Origin: Diabrotica undecimpunctata
Lineage: Eukaryota; Arthropoda; Insecta; Coleoptera; Chrysomelidae
Length of the DNA: 64,000 nt
Direction of reading: 5' to 3'
NCBI RefSeq assembly: GCF_040954645.1
Contig: NC_092807.1
Coordinates: 83,084,608-83,148,607, forward strand
The translations under genes and the position numbers were made by a program. The notes under the pieces were generated by a model. The model was not told the DNA's origin and did not search any database. It worked only from the letters and a program-made list of their open reading frames with translations. Below are positions 53,611 through 60,574 of this stretch, piece by piece. Numbering within the stretch: the stretch's first letter is position 1; every line of letters begins with the position of its first letter.

Positions 53611-54269
53611 TTATAATTAGCTACCATATATTATCTATAAAAAAACATTATTGATCTTACCGTAACTTAGAATTGTAGAGTTAGAATGTTAACAAACTTA
53701 GCTACCACTAACATAGTGGTGTTTTGACGTGACAACGTCTTAAATTAGGTTGTGGCTCGGAGTCACTCATGAAAAAGTGTAACGCCCGCTCACGTCTGTT
53801 ACGATGACTCTCCCACTCAAACATGATCGGTCCGCTGCGCGCGCAGCACTAGAGAATTAGGCGCGTTGAATCGGTGCGTGCTTGTGTCTCTGTCTTTCTC
53901 GAGCGTTCTTGGCGTTGGAAAACCGAGAAAGCGTCATAATACAAGTTCACACGTGTGGTTAAAGTATCGTCAGCTGTGTCTGTAGTGAAAATGTGGAGTG
54001 CTTAGATTCGTCATTTACAACAACTACAACAATAAAGGTAAATAATTGTACACTAATATTTCATTATCGTAAACTATGATTGATTGATTAATTGTTAGAT
54101 TGACACAAAAGTTAAGAAACTGAGTTTATAGGTTATGTCATACTATTGACAAATGTTGATAGTGTTAAGTAAATTATTAGTTTAAATCACTCTGCAATCA
54201 ATCGTAATTCAGTCGATTGAGAAGAAACAGCGCGTATTGCTAGTCAGGATGTGTTCCATACATACATAT
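53611..54269. other. Relatively GC-rich, promoter- or exon-like stretch
   Basis: 53750-54045 stands out from the AT-rich surroundings by CpG-containing sequence (GCGCGCGCAGC near 53835, CGCGTTGAATCGG near 53862). It ends in AATAAAGGTAAATA near 54035, which could be a splice donor. No protein-coding frame is seen. It could be a noncoding first exon and promoter, or the left end of an unknown element whose inverted end lies at 60741. Confidence 0.35.
54266..54269. repeat. Target-site duplication, left copy
   Basis: ATAT immediately outside the left LTR of Gypsy-4, repeated at 60571-60574. Confidence 0.8.
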
Positions 54270-54540
54270 TGTAGCGAGATTAAATAAAACGAGCGGTTCG
54301 AATTTATATACATATATTTATTTATAAGTTTACAGTTCGGTACTCTCTTATCAACTAAGCTCACTCCTAACAACGTTACATATATATAATAAAGTTACTT
54401 TTCGAGAACATTCTGGCGTTGTCCCACCTCTAATTGTCTCCCGTCCGAAAGACGGGCGCTATTGACAAGCCGATTCTTACGTTTTCTAGATTCGTCCTTC
54501 TAAGAATTATGACGTATCGGAGATGGGCTATTTCGTTACA
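54270..54540 (-). repeat. Gypsy-4 3' LTR
   Basis: 271 bp, apparently identical to 60300-60570. It contains AATAAAGTTAC-like and GACGGGCG stretches. The body starts 11 bp after the pol stop. Confidence 0.95.
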
Positions 54541-54551
54541 CTGCTCCCCTC
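54541..54551 (-). promoter_or_regulatory. Gypsy-4 polypurine tract
   Basis: The minus strand reads AAGAGGGGAGCAG up to the LTR, overlapping the pol stop region. It is the expected plus-strand primer site. Confidence 0.75.
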
Positions 54552-56957
54552 TTAAATCTGATTGTCCCGATCAGCAACTCTATATGTAGGCACAGGATGG
54601 CGGAATCTACAGGACTCTCCAGCTCTGCATGAACCCTTTAGAAAGAAATAACAGTCTACTGACTTTGAAGGATACGATCTCATCGGGTTAATGCAACACA
54701 CAGTAATTCGTACGCCGGTTTCTCGGAAGATCACTTCAAGCATGCTTCTGACAATCTTCCAGTCCAGATTATCTAGTGCATGGCCTATTTTGGGTAAGGC
54801 CAAATTCTTGATGTCGTAATTGCACACAATTTTCTTCAAATTAGTTAGAGCACGCCATATATCCTCGTAGCTTGCCCTGTCTGTATACGACTTCCTGGTC
54901 ACCATATACAGCAAAGATCGAGAACCATCTTCTAATCTCAGTACTCTTCCAACTTTAGGTTGCTGGTTTTTTAACTCATCCAAACGACCGAATTTCTTAT
55001 AAAATACGGATGAGATTCCGTTAGTCATCTCAAGATCTTGGGCAACACAGTGGGCTAGAGAGACGTTATGCGGAACACTAAAAAGATCCTGCTGAACTTC
55101 TGTGGTCACGCCGAATCTAGCACTCTTTCTCTCTGCGTAATTTGACATAAATTCATTAAAGCTTGGTCGCCGGTCATCTTTGATCTCATGTTGAAGGGTT
55201 CGTGCTTCTTCTGTTTCATTTGAGCCAGCATATGGTGCAAGACGATTTATGTGAACTACTTTTGGTTTACCTTTCGGCAACTTCTTAATTCGGAATATTA
55301 CGTCATTTATTTTCTTTTTAATTTCATATGGACCTTCCCATTGCCTTTGCAGTTTGGGAGACAAGCCTAGACGACGTTGTGGATTATAAAGCCAAACAAG
55401 ATCACCTACTTCATGGCTTTCACTCTTACATCGAGAATCATATTGATCTTTCATTCTGTCACTGGCTATCTGGATGTGTTGTCGGGCAAGTTCATGAATG
55501 TTGTTCATTCTTAACTTCAGGCGGTCGACATAATCTTCGCTTGCAACATGTTCTTCGGAAGGTCTGCAGCCAAACTCTAGGTCGCAGGGCAAACGAACTT
55601 CACGACCTAACATCAGGCAGGTTGGAGTCTGGCCTGTAGTTTCATTCACGGCCGAGCGGTAGGCCATTAGGAATAAATGAATATGCTGGTCCCAATCTCT
55701 TTGATGTTCTGATACAACCTTGGATAGGTGTTTACCCATTGTTCGGTTCATTCTCTCCACCATTCCGTCTGATTGAGGATGCAGGGGTGTCGTTCTGGTC
55801 TTATTGACACCAATCAATTTACAAACGTTTTGGAAAAGGGTTGACTCGAAGTTTCGCCCTTGGTCGGAGTGGATCTCCAAGGGAACACCAAATCGGCTAA
55901 AGAATTCTTTAACAAGTACCTCTGCAACGGTAGCAGCTTCTTGATTTGGTATCGCATAAGCCTCAGTCCATTTCGTAAAATAATCCATGGCTACCAGGAT
56001 ATATTTATTTCCATCATTTGTCTCTGGAAGTGAAACTGCAATGTCGATTGCTACTTTTTCCATAGGACTACCAACATTGTACTGTCTCATGGGTGCCCTC
56101 TTTTTACCTGCTGGACCATTACTGGTTGCACACAGTTCACATTTCCGGCACCATCTTCTTACATCATCTTTACAGTTCACCCAATAGAACCGTTCTCGAA
56201 CCTTTTGCAGAGTCTTCGTGATACCAAAGTGTCCACCTGATGCACCGTCATGCAACTGACGCAATACTTCTGAAACTTTACTTTTAGGTACAATTAACTG
56301 AAGCTTAGTTTCTGTACCATCATCGTTCTCAAAGGTTCTATACAGAAGATCATCTTTCAGCACTAGGCAATTCCATTGGCTCCAGTAACACTTGACTTCT
56401 GGACTACATGCACTAATGTCTTGCCAAGAAGGTCTCTCACTTCGACGCATCCAATCCAATACTCTTTTTATACATGGATCATCTGCTTGAGCGTCTTGTA
56501 GCTGTTGAGGTTGCCATTGCTCATTAATGACGGTGGTTCGTCTCACGGGGCAAATTCGTTCTTCTAATTTAAGACAGTGATTACAATTTGCACTGCACGG
56601 CCGTCTCGAAAGGGCATCAGCATTTGAATGAACTCTGCCAGCCCTGTGTTCGATCTCGTAATCATATTCTTGTAATCGTTCTAACCATCTTGCCATCTGA
56701 CCCTCTGGATTACGAAATTGTAGGAGCCATTTTAGAGCAGCGTGATCCGTGCGAAGAAGAAACTTTCTGCCATACAAGTATTTATGGAAATGCTCACAAG
56801 CCTTCACTACGCCTAGCAATTCTCTTCTGGTAACGCAATAGTTTCTTTCTGGTTTTGACAAGACTTTGCTAAAGTAAGCGATGACTTTCTCCTGCCCATC
56901 TTGGATTTGGGAAAGAACAGCTCCTATTGCACTGTTGCTTGCATCGGTGTCCAACAC
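54552..56957 (-). CDS. Gypsy-4 Pol part 2: RNase H, integrase, macro domain, CCCH finger
   Basis: 801-residue open frame. RNase H opens with LDTDASNSAIGAV, ELLGVVKACEHF and TDHAALKW. Integrase: zinc finger (HDGASGGHFGITK and CRKCELCATS), then D in AIDIAVSLPE (about residue 304), D in IHSDQGRNFE (about 364) and E in DGMVERMNR (about 399), and GPYEIKK with VVHINRLAPY near the end of the domain. After a charged linker the frame continues into a macro domain at about residues 624-755 (DLFSVPHNVSLAHCV, FYKKFGRLDELKNQQ, LPKIGHALDNLDW). It ends in a canonical C-x7-C-x5-C-x3-H finger (about 769-787). The start at 56957 is not a natural initiation site, because this frame is reached from the preceding RT frame after a one-base loss. 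The stop lies 12 bp from the 3' LTR, so the extension occupies the place of env. Confidence 0.93.
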   Translation of the reverse strand: MLDTDASNSAIGAVLSQIQDGQEKVIAYFSKVLSKPERNYCVTRRELLGVVKACEHFHKYLYGRKFLLRTDHAALKWLLQFRNPEGQMARWLERLQEYDYEIEHRAGRVHSNADALSRRPCSANCNHCLKLEERICPVRRTTVINEQWQPQQLQDAQADDPCIKRVLDWMRRSERPSWQDISACSPEVKCYWSQWNCLVLKDDLLYRTFENDDGTETKLQLIVPKSKVSEVLRQLHDGASGGHFGITKTLQKVRERFYWVNCKDDVRRWCRKCELCATSNGPAGKKRAPMRQYNVGSPMEKVAIDIAVSLPETNDGNKYILVAMDYFTKWTEAYAIPNQEAATVAEVLVKEFFSRFGVPLEIHSDQGRNFESTLFQNVCKLIGVNKTRTTPLHPQSDGMVERMNRTMGKHLSKVVSEHQRDWDQHIHLFLMAYRSAVNETTGQTPTCLMLGREVRLPCDLEFGCRPSEEHVASEDYVDRLKLRMNNIHELARQHIQIASDRMKDQYDSRCKSESHEVGDLVWLYNPQRRLGLSPKLQRQWEGPYEIKKKINDVIFRIKKLPKGKPKVVHINRLAPYAGSNETEEARTLQHEIKDDRRPSFNEFMSNYAERKSARFGVTTEVQQDLFSVPHNVSLAHCVAQDLEMTNGISSVFYKKFGRLDELKNQQPKVGRVLRLEDGSRSLLYMVTRKSYTDRASYEDIWRALTNLKKIVCNYDIKNLALPKIGHALDNLDWKIVRSMLEVIFRETGVRITVCCINPMRSYPSKSVDCYFFLKGSCRAGESCRFRHPVPTYRVADRDNQI
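54597..54653 (-). other. CCCH zinc finger in Gypsy-4 Pol
   Basis: Within DCYFFLKGSCRAGESCRFRH the spacing is C-x7-C-x5-C-x3-H, the standard RNA-binding CCCH type. It is 12 residues from the macro domain and 14 residues from the C terminus. Confidence 0.85.
54693..55088 (-). other. Macro domain (TARG1/OARD1-like) in Gypsy-4 Pol
   Basis: About 132 residues with the family pattern: DLF start strand, LAHCVAQD, NGISSVFYKKFG, LNQQ-like ELKNQQ, SLLYMVTRK, SYEDIWRALTNLK, ALPKIGHALDNLDW, VIFRETGVRITV. By eye it is closest to the TARG1/OARD1 branch, whose members remove ADP-ribose from proteins. The Asp of LDNLDW aligns with the catalytic Asp of human TARG1 (D125). The residue aligning with its catalytic Lys (K84) appears to be Arg in VTRK. 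Function is inferred from family only. Confidence 0.85.
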
Positions 56958-58795
56958 AAATTTCCTGCCTGTCTAGGGTAGCTTAAAATCGGTGCGCTGA
57001 TCAGAGCCATTTGTAAGTGTTCAAAAGCTCTTTGACACTCTTCGCTCCATGTATATTCTTTGCCTTCTTCTGTCAACTTTGTTAATGGCTTGGAGATATT
57101 GGCAAATCCTTTGACAAAACGGCGGTAATATGTACATAGGCCAAGAAAACTTCTAATTTCGTGTTTATCTCTTGGTACTGGCCAATCCTTAATTGCTGCA
57201 AGTTTTTCAGGATCAGCTGTTACACCATTACTTGCTACAATATGTCCCAAGTACTTCACTTCTCGTCGAAACAAGTGACATTTCTTCGGACTCAACTTCA
57301 GATTCGCTGCCCGCAATCGTTGAAAGACTTCTGTTAGATTATTGGCATGTTCATCGAAGGATCTTCCAACTACAATTACATCATCCAAATAAACCAGGCA
57401 TGTTTTCCATGTTAGACCTCTTAAAACTGCATCCATTAATCTTTCAAATGTGGCCGGGGCATTACATAAACCAAAGGGCATAACTGTGAACTGCCAAAGC
57501 CCTGATCCTATCGAGAATGCGGTTTTTTCACGATCAGCTGGCTCCATGTCTACTTGCCAATATCCACTTTTCAGATCGAGTGTGGAGAACCAACGAGAAC
57601 CAGAAAGTGTATCCAAAGTATCGTCTATTCTGGGCAAAGGATAACTATCTTTTTTAGTTACTGCATTGAGCTGTCGGTAGTCAATACAAAAACGTGTTGA
57701 ACCATCTTTCTTCTTTACTAGGACTACAGGTGATGTCCATGGACTGTTTGATGGTTCAATTACCCCTTGTTTGTTCATATCTTTGATGATGTCTTCGGCT
57801 TCATCTCTTTTCGAAAATGGAAGTCGTCTAGGTTGTTGTCTGATTGGCTGAGCGTCTCCGGTATTAATTTTATGCTTTACTATGCTTGTTTTGCCATTAT
57901 CCTTCTTATCCATGGCAAAAACATCTTGAAATTCTATCAGCATAGACTTCACTCTTTTAGTTCGTTCATCATCAAGATCTTGGCACGTTTTAATCATCGT
58001 CTCAACAAGCTCCTTTGGATACTTAGATTTCGACGGTTTCTCATTAGTATTCATGGAACAAATCGAAGCCACGGGAACACACTGTCCGATCAAAGTTCTT
58101 TTACTTAACTTAATGGCAGTTCCCTTTAAATTCATAACTCTTACAGGAACGACATCTCGAATTCTCACCAAAGCTTTTGCCGTTAGGAACTCGGCATTAT
58201 TCACATCTTCGACCATCCTTAAACTTCCCTCTCGGCAGTAACCATCAGGTCTGGTCATCAAAATTTTCTCACTATTACCGGGTATTGTTACGTCACAAGT
58301 AGTTATTAAGCTGATAACATCTTCTTTGTCGTCATGAAACGGCAACTCTTCACCACTGATCTCGAGAACTCCATCTTTGACATTCAATACAGCCCCAACT
58401 TTCCTTAGTAAATCCATCCCCAATATGAACTCATCGGAGATCTCTGCAATTAATACTGTATGTTTTACTGTGGTCTGGCCAATGGATACTGACATATTAG
58501 CCTCGCCATATGTATTAATTATCTCACCAGTTGCTGTTCTAAGCTTGACTGTTGCAGGCAATAATTTAAGATGGCCTCGTACTACTTCTGGCCGTGCAAT
58601 AGTTCTCGTTGCACCTGTATCTACCAAAAACGATCTACATTTATTATTGATACGACCCTCTATGTACAAGCTATGAATTCCACCTGAGGACGTAATGTTC
58701 ACAGTTACTATGGGGGCTGTGTTTCTCGAGGTCGGCAGTTGCCCCTTGTTGTCGACCCGTTCTAGTTTTCCGACTGCTGTATCATTTTCTTGCAA
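56924..58795 (-). CDS. Gypsy-4 Pol part 1: protease and reverse transcriptase
   Basis: 623-residue frame overlapping the gag end by 34 bp in the -1 register, so a Gag-Pol frameshift is expected. Protease: FLVDTGATRTIA near residue 57 and FILGMDLLRKVG. A region of about 150 residues follows. RT (about 320-560) shows RLPFSKRDEAEDII, STRFCIDYRQLN, STLDLKSGYWQV, FGLCNAPATF and the YLDD catalytic box near residue 460, then FLGLCTYYRRF. The frame ends artificially at 56924: one base is missing between GGAAA and TTTGTG near 56965, after which RNase H is in the other frame. In an element with identical LTRs this is either a very recent mutation or a sequencing error. Confidence 0.93.
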   Translation of the reverse strand: MQENDTAVGKLERVDNKGQLPTSRNTAPIVTVNITSSGGIHSLYIEGRINNKCRSFLVDTGATRTIARPEVVRGHLKLLPATVKLRTATGEIINTYGEANMSVSIGQTTVKHTVLIAEISDEFILGMDLLRKVGAVLNVKDGVLEISGEELPFHDDKEDVISLITTCDVTIPGNSEKILMTRPDGYCREGSLRMVEDVNNAEFLTAKALVRIRDVVPVRVMNLKGTAIKLSKRTLIGQCVPVASICSMNTNEKPSKSKYPKELVETMIKTCQDLDDERTKRVKSMLIEFQDVFAMDKKDNGKTSIVKHKINTGDAQPIRQQPRRLPFSKRDEAEDIIKDMNKQGVIEPSNSPWTSPVVLVKKKDGSTRFCIDYRQLNAVTKKDSYPLPRIDDTLDTLSGSRWFSTLDLKSGYWQVDMEPADREKTAFSIGSGLWQFTVMPFGLCNAPATFERLMDAVLRGLTWKTCLVYLDDVIVVGRSFDEHANNLTEVFQRLRAANLKLSPKKCHLFRREVKYLGHIVASNGVTADPEKLAAIKDWPVPRDKHEIRSFLGLCTYYRRFVKGFANISKPLTKLTEEGKEYTWSEECQRAFEHLQMALISAPILSYPRQAGNLCWTPMQATVQ

Positions 58796-60147
58796 TTACG
58801 GCGAATATGACCTACGTCACCGCAATTCCAACATCTGGGCTCGCGTCTCTTCGGCATCGTGTTACGAACTACTTTTCGTACCATTTCTTCCAGACGTTCA
58901 TCGTTTGGTTCGTCGCCTTCTTCGATGGTTCTTACTCGATGGCTCCGTGAAGTTTGACTAGCTGTTTCATGTTCCAAGGCAATAGCGAGCGCTTCATCCA
59001 GAACTTTTGGTCTTGCTAGTCGTAAAGCTTTCTGTAATTCACTTTCTTTTAACCCATTGACGAAGGTATCTACAGCAATTTTTTCCAAAATGTTGTCTGG
59101 TACTTCCGGATAAGCCAACCGCACTATACGAGCAACATCTGCTTCAAACTCTTGTAAATTTTCACTTGCTCGTTGAATTCTACTTCTTAGTTGCGCCTTG
59201 TAGACTTGTTGTAGATGGGCATCTCCGTAACGTTTGTCTAGTCGAGTGAACAAGGTCTGGTAACATTTTTCTTGACCCTTAGGAATCGATCTTAGGATAT
59301 CTGCAGCATCACCTCGTAAAGCAGCAGTCAAGGAAACAGCTTTTTCTTGTTCTGTCCAATGATTGGCTGTCGCAATAGCTTCAAATTGTCTAAGGTATAT
59401 GGACCAAGAAGACTTTCCATCAAATGGTGGCAATTTGAATCTCATATTATGTGTCGTTTCGTCTCTAGGTAATTCTTCTTTCACTACCGGATCTAAGGCT
59501 ACTGCATTAACTGGTGGTAGCACTTTTGTATTGGTTATCATGCTCTCTAATTGTTTGATCTTCTCTTCTACTTTATCAAATGTTCTTGAGACTTCTTCAA
59601 ATTTCTCATTGTTTTGATTACATACTTCTTTAATTATTTGAGAAGTCTCGTCGAATCTTCTAGCAACATTTTCGAATTTCTCTTCATTTTGTTTAGCTGC
59701 TTCTTTAATAATTTGAGACGTTTCATCGAATCTTTTGGAAACGTTCTCGAATTTATCATCATTTTTTTTAGAAGATTCTTCTATCATTTGAGACGTTTCA
59801 TCGAATCTTTTGGAAACATTCTCGAATTTATCATCATTTTTTTTAGAAGATTCTTCTATCATTTGAGACGTTTCATTGAATCTTTCATCATTTTTTTTAG
59901 AAGATTCTTCTATCATTTGCGACGTTTCATCGAATCTTTTGGAAACATTCTCGAATTTTCCATCAATTATTTTAGTTAAAACGGCTTCGTCTGCTGACTG
60001 GAACTGGAATGTCTCTGGGTCTTCTCCATTCTTGTTGAGAACAGTCTTTAGTCGTTCTTGGAGTGTCTTCTTGGACCCACTGCAGTCTTCATCGCGTTCT
60101 TCTAGTTGCTCACGCAACTGTTTTACTGAAAGTTCTACTAGCAGCAT
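58762..60147 (-). CDS. Gypsy-4 Gag with coiled-coil repeats
   Basis: 461-residue intact Gag. Residues 1-40 resemble a SAP-type helix-turn-helix (LSVKQLREQLEERDEDCSG). Residues about 60-200 are tandem 25-residue repeats built on KFENVSKRFDETSQ plus MIEESSKKNDD, predicted to form a coiled coil; one copy is shortened to 18 residues. The capsid-like retrotransposon-gag domain follows (FKLPPFDGKSSWSIYLRQFEA, LRGDAADILRSIP, LDKRYGDAHLQQVY). A CCHC knuckle (CWNCGDVGHIRRNC) lies 11 residues before the stop. The ATG at 60147 is the first in the frame. Pol overlaps the last codons. Confidence 0.93.
   Translation of the reverse strand: MLLVELSVKQLREQLEERDEDCSGSKKTLQERLKTVLNKNGEDPETFQFQSADEAVLTKIIDGKFENVSKRFDETSQMIEESSKKNDERFNETSQMIEESSKKNDDKFENVSKRFDETSQMIEESSKKNDDKFENVSKRFDETSQIIKEAAKQNEEKFENVARRFDETSQIIKEVCNQNNEKFEEVSRTFDKVEEKIKQLESMITNTKVLPPVNAVALDPVVKEELPRDETTHNMRFKLPPFDGKSSWSIYLRQFEAIATANHWTEQEKAVSLTAALRGDAADILRSIPKGQEKCYQTLFTRLDKRYGDAHLQQVYKAQLRSRIQRASENLQEFEADVARIVRLAYPEVPDNILEKIAVDTFVNGLKESELQKALRLARPKVLDEALAIALEHETASQTSRSHRVRTIEEGDEPNDERLEEMVRKVVRNTMPKRREPRCWNCGDVGHIRRNCKKMIQQSEN
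59600..59975 (-). repeat. 75-bp tandem repeat within Gypsy-4 gag
   Basis: About five copies of a 75-bp unit, in frame, one lacking 21 bp. The middle copies are nearly identical in DNA, so copy number may vary between insertions. Confidence 0.85.
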
Positions 60148-60280
60148 CTTTGGTCAGGCACACACGTACTTTTTAAATGTTCTTTTATATAAAGATCACT
60201 ACGCGGATGTTCCCGACGAATAATACTTTTCAAAAGTTCAAAAGTCTTTTTCAAAAATCACTGCTGAATTTATTTGCAAA

Positions 60281-60297
60281 CCCCACACCTGACACCA
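60281..60297 (-). promoter_or_regulatory. Gypsy-4 primer-binding site
   Basis: The minus strand reads TGGTGTCAGGTGTGGGG two bases inside the 5' LTR. It begins with TGG as expected, and differs from the TGGCGC type of Gypsy-1 and Gypsy-2, so a different tRNA primes this element. Confidence 0.82.
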
Positions 60298-60299
60298 AC

Positions 60300-60570
60300 T
60301 GTAGCGAGATTAAATAAAACGAGCGGTTCGAATTTATATACATATATTTATTTATAAGTTTACAGTTCGGTACTCTCTTATCAACTAAGCTCACTCCTAA
60401 CAACGTTACATATATATAATAAAGTTACTTTTCGAGAACATTCTGGCGTTGTCCCACCTCTAATTGTCTCCCGTCCGAAAGACGGGCGCTATTGACAAGC
60501 CGATTCTTACGTTTTCTAGATTCGTCCTTCTAAGAATTATGACGTATCGGAGATGGGCTATTTCGTTACA
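60300..60570 (-). repeat. Gypsy-4 5' LTR
   Basis: 271 bp, apparently identical to 54270-54540. Confidence 0.95.
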
Positions 60571-60574
60571 ATAT
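60571..60574. repeat. Target-site duplication, right copy
   Basis: ATAT, matches 54266-54269. Confidence 0.8.

What the first reader, a model, noticed from the sequence alone, without database searches (positions are those of the whole stretch)
54552..55100. Macro domain plus CCCH finger fused to a Gypsy Pol, in the env position
Downstream of the integrase, the same open frame of Gypsy-4 encodes a macro domain of the TARG1/OARD1 type followed by a C-x7-C-x5-C-x3-H zinc finger, and stops 12 bp before the 3' LTR. Macro domains are known in some RNA viruses, where they remove ADP-ribose added by host PARPs. A retrotransposon carrying one with an RNA-binding finger would suggest an anti-defence or RNP-associated module captured from the host. 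I am not aware of this architecture being described for Ty3/Gypsy, but I could not search.
Basis: partly seen in the sequence, partly recalled or inferred. Interest (0 to 1): 0.92.

Follow-up and report, generated by a model that had tools for sequence, protein, structure and literature searches.

The report
Macro-domain module on a beetle retrotransposon integrase
An abundant jumping gene in what is probably a beetle genome carries, fused to the end of its integrase, an ADP-ribose-recognising domain like one of our own cell enzymes plus an RNA-binding-type zinc finger; related beetle elements carry it too, and in two families the domain lost different catalytic residues while its predicted fold stayed intact, which suggests that it now mainly binds rather than cuts.

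The parts
54270..60570 (-). whole Ty3/Gypsy element, family A
   Evidence: identical 271-bp direct repeats at both ends; Gag, PR, RT, RH, IN domains
54270..54540 (-). 3' LTR
   Evidence: identical to 60300-60570
60300..60570 (-). 5' LTR
54266..54269 (.). target-site duplication ATAT, 3' side of the element
60571..60574 (.). target-site duplication ATAT, 5' side of the element
60281..60297 (-). primer-binding-site-like TGGTGTCAGGTGTGGGG, 2 nt after the 5' LTR; tRNA not identified
   Evidence: read
54541..54551 (-). purine-rich tract between stop codon and 3' LTR
   Evidence: read
58762..60153 (-). Gag frame (stop to stop): SAP domain (60135-60043), 75-bp repeats, CCHC knuckle (58836-58786)
56924..58795 (-). 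first Pol frame of this copy: protease and reverse transcriptase
54552..56972 (-). second Pol frame of this copy: RNase H, integrase, macro domain, finger
55776..56066 (-). integrase core (rve)
   Evidence: Pfam PF00665 E 5.7e-15
55233..55334 (-). integrase C-terminal domain (Integrase_p58_C)
   Evidence: Pfam PF22938 E 3.7e-11
55107..55232 (-). linker with a [ST]FxxFM motif
   Evidence: motif in 9 of 10 elements compared, absent in P0004
54696..55106 (-). TARG1-type macro domain (Lys84 position is Arg, Gly123 is Ala, Asp125 kept)
54594..54665 (-). CCCH zinc finger, C-x7-C-x5-C-x3-H
   Evidence: PF00642 22.7 bits against cut-off 20.5; best PDB rows CPSF4

Best explanation
The module is an inherited C-terminal extension of the Pol polyprotein of a Ty3/Gypsy lineage found in beetles: integrase C-terminal domain, linker, TARG1-type macro domain, CCCH finger. 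By sequence it descends from an ADP-ribosyl hydrolase of the TARG1 kind. In the window's family the catalytic lysine is fixed as arginine, so the domain most likely works as an ADP-ribose binder (reader) carried by integrase: it docks the integration complex on ADP-ribosylated chromatin or break-repair proteins, or on ADP-ribosylated nucleic acid, much as a chromodomain does for chromoviruses with methylated histones (recalled), while the finger contacts RNA or single-stranded nucleic acid. Shown: sequence and predicted fold, residues, copy number, co-divergence with integrase, constraint. Inferred: ligand binding, loss of hydrolysis, tethering.
Against: No binding or activity data. 64 of 66 unique element domains outside families A and B keep Lys84 and Asp125 (53 of the 66 are Aromia copies), so a hydrolase is probably ancestral and may still act there. 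Arg84 with an acidic residue kept at 125 (Asp in 19, Glu in 5 of 24) might retain some activity by a lysine-free route. Family B also lost Cys33 (24 of 24) and His32 (23 of 24) of the distal ribose pocket, so even ADP-ribose binding may be altered. The strength of selection is poorly measured: all five fetched copies in the small sample had also appeared in macro-ranked lists. The 3' flanks show only a short ATAT-like preference, which needs no reader, and no shared target region (1 similar pair of 325). P0004 has the macro domain without a finger.
Confidence: 0.4

Rival explanations
1. Anti-defence eraser: the module removes ADP-ribose that host enzymes attach to element RNA, cDNA or proteins, as the first reader proposed and as viral macro domains do.
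For: TARG1 fold; Lys84 and Asp125 kept in 64 of 66 unique domains of other element lineages; human TARG1 reverses thymidine-linked ADP-ribosylation of ssDNA and K84A fails to rescue (PMC8501950, passages).
Against: Lys84 is Arg in the window's family and Asp125 is lost in family B, yet both domains stay constrained. Insects are not known to have the vertebrate set of antiviral PARPs (recalled).
Confidence: 0.25
2. RNP or packaging module: macro domain and CCCH finger together bind nucleic acid and help packaging, reverse transcription or 3'-end handling; ADP-ribose is irrelevant.
For: A CCCH finger follows the macro domain in both families here and in the relatives aligned except P0004 and the truncated P0124; best PDB rows for it are CPSF4, though each single finger scores weakly; the chikungunya nsP3 macro domain is described as binding RNA as well as ADP-ribose (PMC11861268, start of abstract in a listing); catalytic residues are dispensable in two families.
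Against: In family A Asp20, His32, Cys33 and Thr83 of the ADP-ribose pocket are kept; P0004 has the macro domain without a finger.
Confidence: 0.2
3. Passenger: the module is tolerated baggage on the end of Pol.
For: Finger (dN/dS 0.42-0.48) and linker (0.38-0.49) evolve faster than the macro domain; catalytic residues changed in two families; macro diverges faster than integrase.
Against: Macro pN well below pS within and between families; kept in both leaf-beetle and longhorn-beetle elements with divergence that tracks integrase.
Confidence: 0.1
4. Local fusion or assembly artefact at this copy.
For: None found.
Against: 1,140 pattern matches; relatives in other species.
Confidence: 0.01

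Closest known systems
TARG1/OARD1 (C6orf130) ADP-ribosyl hydrolase
   Same: fold; Asp20, His32, Cys33, Thr83 and Asp125 in the window copy; 38% identity in the structural alignment
   Different: fused to a retrotransposon integrase with a CCCH finger; Lys84 is Arg, Gly123 is Ala
Macro-domain ORFs in fish epsilon-like endogenous retroviruses (Basta et al. 2009, not seen; cited in PMC4977317, one passage seen)
   Same: an LTR retroelement with a macro-domain protein
   Different: described there as additional open reading frames in vertebrate endogenous retroviruses, macro subtype not given; here a Pol C-terminal fusion in Ty3/Gypsy
Chromoviruses: Ty3/Gypsy with a chromodomain at the integrase C-terminus (recalled; only the listing of PMC2864245 seen)
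   Same: a chromatin-type binding domain added to the integrase end
   Different: macro domain instead of chromodomain
Alphavirus nsP3: macro domain, zinc-binding domain, hypervariable region (PMC7468284, start of abstract in listing)
   Different: another macro class, another zinc domain, an RNA virus
DarG antitoxin macro domain
   Different: bacterial toxin-antitoxin protein with a catalytic lysine, K80 (PMC8501950, passage)

Membership tests
Ty3/Gypsy LTR retrotransposon | LTRs, target duplication, PBS-like and purine-rich sites, order PR-RT-RH-IN | tested here: met
Ty3/Gypsy LTR retrotransposon | position in an RT tree with reference clades | not tested
   no named reference elements were at hand
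Errantivirus-like element with env | env ORF between integrase and 3' LTR | tested here: not met
   the Pol frame itself fills the space up to 11 bp from the LTR
TARG1-type macro domain | fold | tested here: met
TARG1-type macro domain | signature TKx(30,35)Px[IL]GxGxD with Lys84 nucleophile (PMC6397177, passage) | tested here: not met
   window has T-R and GHALD; Lys84 and Asp125 kept in 64 of 66 other element domains
TARG1-type macro domain | ADP-ribose binding and hydrolysis | not testable with these tools
   needs biochemistry
CCCH-type zinc finger | C-x7-9-C-x5-C-x3-H spacing and PF00642 score | tested here: met
   above the Pfam cut-off in the window and in family B
CCCH-type zinc finger | RNA binding | not testable with these tools
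   needs biochemistry
Chromovirus | chromodomain after integrase | tested here: not met
   no chromodomain listed in the Pfam scan at E up to 0.1; macro domain instead

The most novel reading that the evidence does not exclude
Beetle Ty3/Gypsy elements evolved an ADP-ribose reader on integrase from a captured TARG1-type eraser, directing or assisting integration at PARP-modified chromatin or breaks: a chromodomain analogue that reads ADP-ribosylation, with catalysis lost by different routes in two families.
Probability: 0.3. Interest if true: 0.88.

Novelty: new variant of a known kind. Interest (0 to 1): 0.72.

Why it matters
It adds ADP-ribosylation to the host signals that an integrating element may read or erase, in a family that has left more than a thousand module copies in one genome. 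Because versions with and without the catalytic residues exist in related elements, the old question whether virus-type macro domains are kept for binding or for hydrolysis becomes directly testable.

Tried and rejected
Local fusion or artefact: rejected. Pfam Macro as the only test misleads, being sub-threshold here. Relatives in viral contigs: none matched the peptide patterns. Host donor: a cellular-looking TARG1-like gene was found in the genome (L061), long-branched among the element domains; one clade of element domains without it is not rejected (p-AU 0.556), so the donor is unresolved. Repeat-targeted integration: flanks of 26 copies compared (27 minus the window's own), 1 similar pair of 325 (the script's printed 351 counted the window copy, which was not in the file). 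Comparison with PDB folds by Foldseek itself could not be run.

Samples and what was dropped. The dN/dS loci (55 A, 28 B) were picked by protein similarity, hence biased low for the macro domain, and include some places fetched twice. The Gag-found sample: 8 of 39 fetched; five of the eight places had already appeared in macro-ranked lists, the other three (L088, L093, L094) had not and also carry the module, one of them with an open frame. The pN/pS used the window and five copies; L093 and L094 (broken frames) and L088 (codon indel) were left out. In one search, 14 partial domains and one locus without a match were dropped, leaving 226 domains, 136 unique.

Literature: searches showed no Ty3/Gypsy element with a macro domain. 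Searches (1 paper; 10; 3) were listed whole; others (20 of 176; 15 of 74; 10 of 479) only in part. Subscription papers, preprints and repeat databases could not be searched.

Full report
What is there. The element spans 54270-60570 on the minus strand. Its two 271-bp LTRs are identical and ATAT flanks it on both sides, so the insertion is recent. Gag carries a SAP domain and a CCHC knuckle; Pol carries protease, RT, RNase H, integrase H2C2, rve and p58_C domains. This copy's Pol is split into two overlapping frames; other copies have one open frame of 1413-1414 aa.

Not a local event. A 35-base macro-domain pattern with up to 3 mismatches matches 1,140 places, control 0. Forty Gag DNA matches were scored, one being the window; of the 39 others I fetched the expected macro position for 8, and 8 of 8 carry the module, 6 with an open frame. 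Five of the 8 places had already appeared in macro-ranked lists; the three that had not also carry it. A second family in the same genome (family B, 43% identical in the macro domain) has macro plus finger, in frames of about 1422 or about 1800 aa. Protein searches gave 4 hits and 134 hits, 120 listed, in Diabrotica virgifera, Aromia moschata, Molorchus minor and unnamed contigs; a Callosobruchus fragment appeared. One relative is filed as Klebsiella pneumoniae (P0077), most likely a contaminant contig. P0004 has the macro domain but no finger.

Selection and history. Between the window and one family-B copy, macro pN is 0.37 and pS 0.86, i.e. synonymous sites are saturated. Within families dN/dS is 0.19 for macro and 0.25 for integrase in A, 0.30 and 0.07 in B; these loci were picked by protein similarity, which biases macro low. 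A sample found by Gag DNA gives pN/pS 0.165 and 6 nonsynonymous against 10 synonymous variable codons, p 6e-4, but it is only 6 sequences and its five fetched copies had also been in macro-ranked lists. Constraint is supported; its strength is not well measured. Macro and integrase identities correlate across 10 elements (r 0.81, p 2e-4; 0.68, p 0.002 without Diabrotica), while the macro domain diverges faster. Element domains are compatible with one capture (p-AU 0.556), but the tree is weakly resolved and a long-branched cellular-looking gene (L061) sits among them.

Mechanism. I propose that the module began as a TARG1-type eraser and became, in the window's family, an ADP-ribose reader on the integrase end. 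The step from lost nucleophile plus constraint to 'reader' is inference; so is tethering. The 3' flanks of 27 copies begin with (A/G)TA(T/C) in 25 cases, a short target preference that does not require a reader. An eraser remains likely in lineages with the full residue set.

Literature. Six searches (three of them listed only in part) of the open-access library showed no Ty3/Gypsy macro-domain element. A review passage (PMC4977317) says that some fish epsilon-like endogenous retroviral sequences include ORFs for macro-domain proteins. The architecture is thus a new variant, not the first macro domain in an LTR retroelement.

Noticed in passing
window 60043-60135 (-): SAP domain at the N-terminus of Gag (PF02037, E 4.4e-6); also annotated in many Aromia relatives. 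One paper search (8 of 1,103 listed) showed no described SAP-Gag.
   Followed up: partly
window 59572-59946 (-): 75-bp tandem repeats in Gag (four overlapping 150-nt copies spaced 75 bp) encoding coiled-coil-like 25-aa units.
   Followed up: no
3' flanks of 27 copies (among L001-L030, L066, L071, L079): 25 of 27 begin with (A/G)TA(T/C), 16 of them ATAT: a short target-site preference.
   Followed up: partly
L061:904-3183 (-): Cellular-looking 760-aa frame with a charged low-complexity N-terminal part, an intact TARG1-type macro domain and, by eye, a second degenerate macro-like stretch; no Pfam match.
   Followed up: partly
P0077: Full gag-pol of a related element filed under Klebsiella pneumoniae on a 6.3-kb contig: probably eukaryotic contamination in a bacterial record.
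   Followed up: no
G000: Some copies of both families have single frames of about 1800-1866 aa, perhaps Gag and Pol in one frame, others about 1413-1422 aa.
   Followed up: no
linker before the macro domain, 10 elements: A [ST]FxxFM motif is kept in 9 of 10 elements, absent in P0004; function unknown.
   Followed up: no
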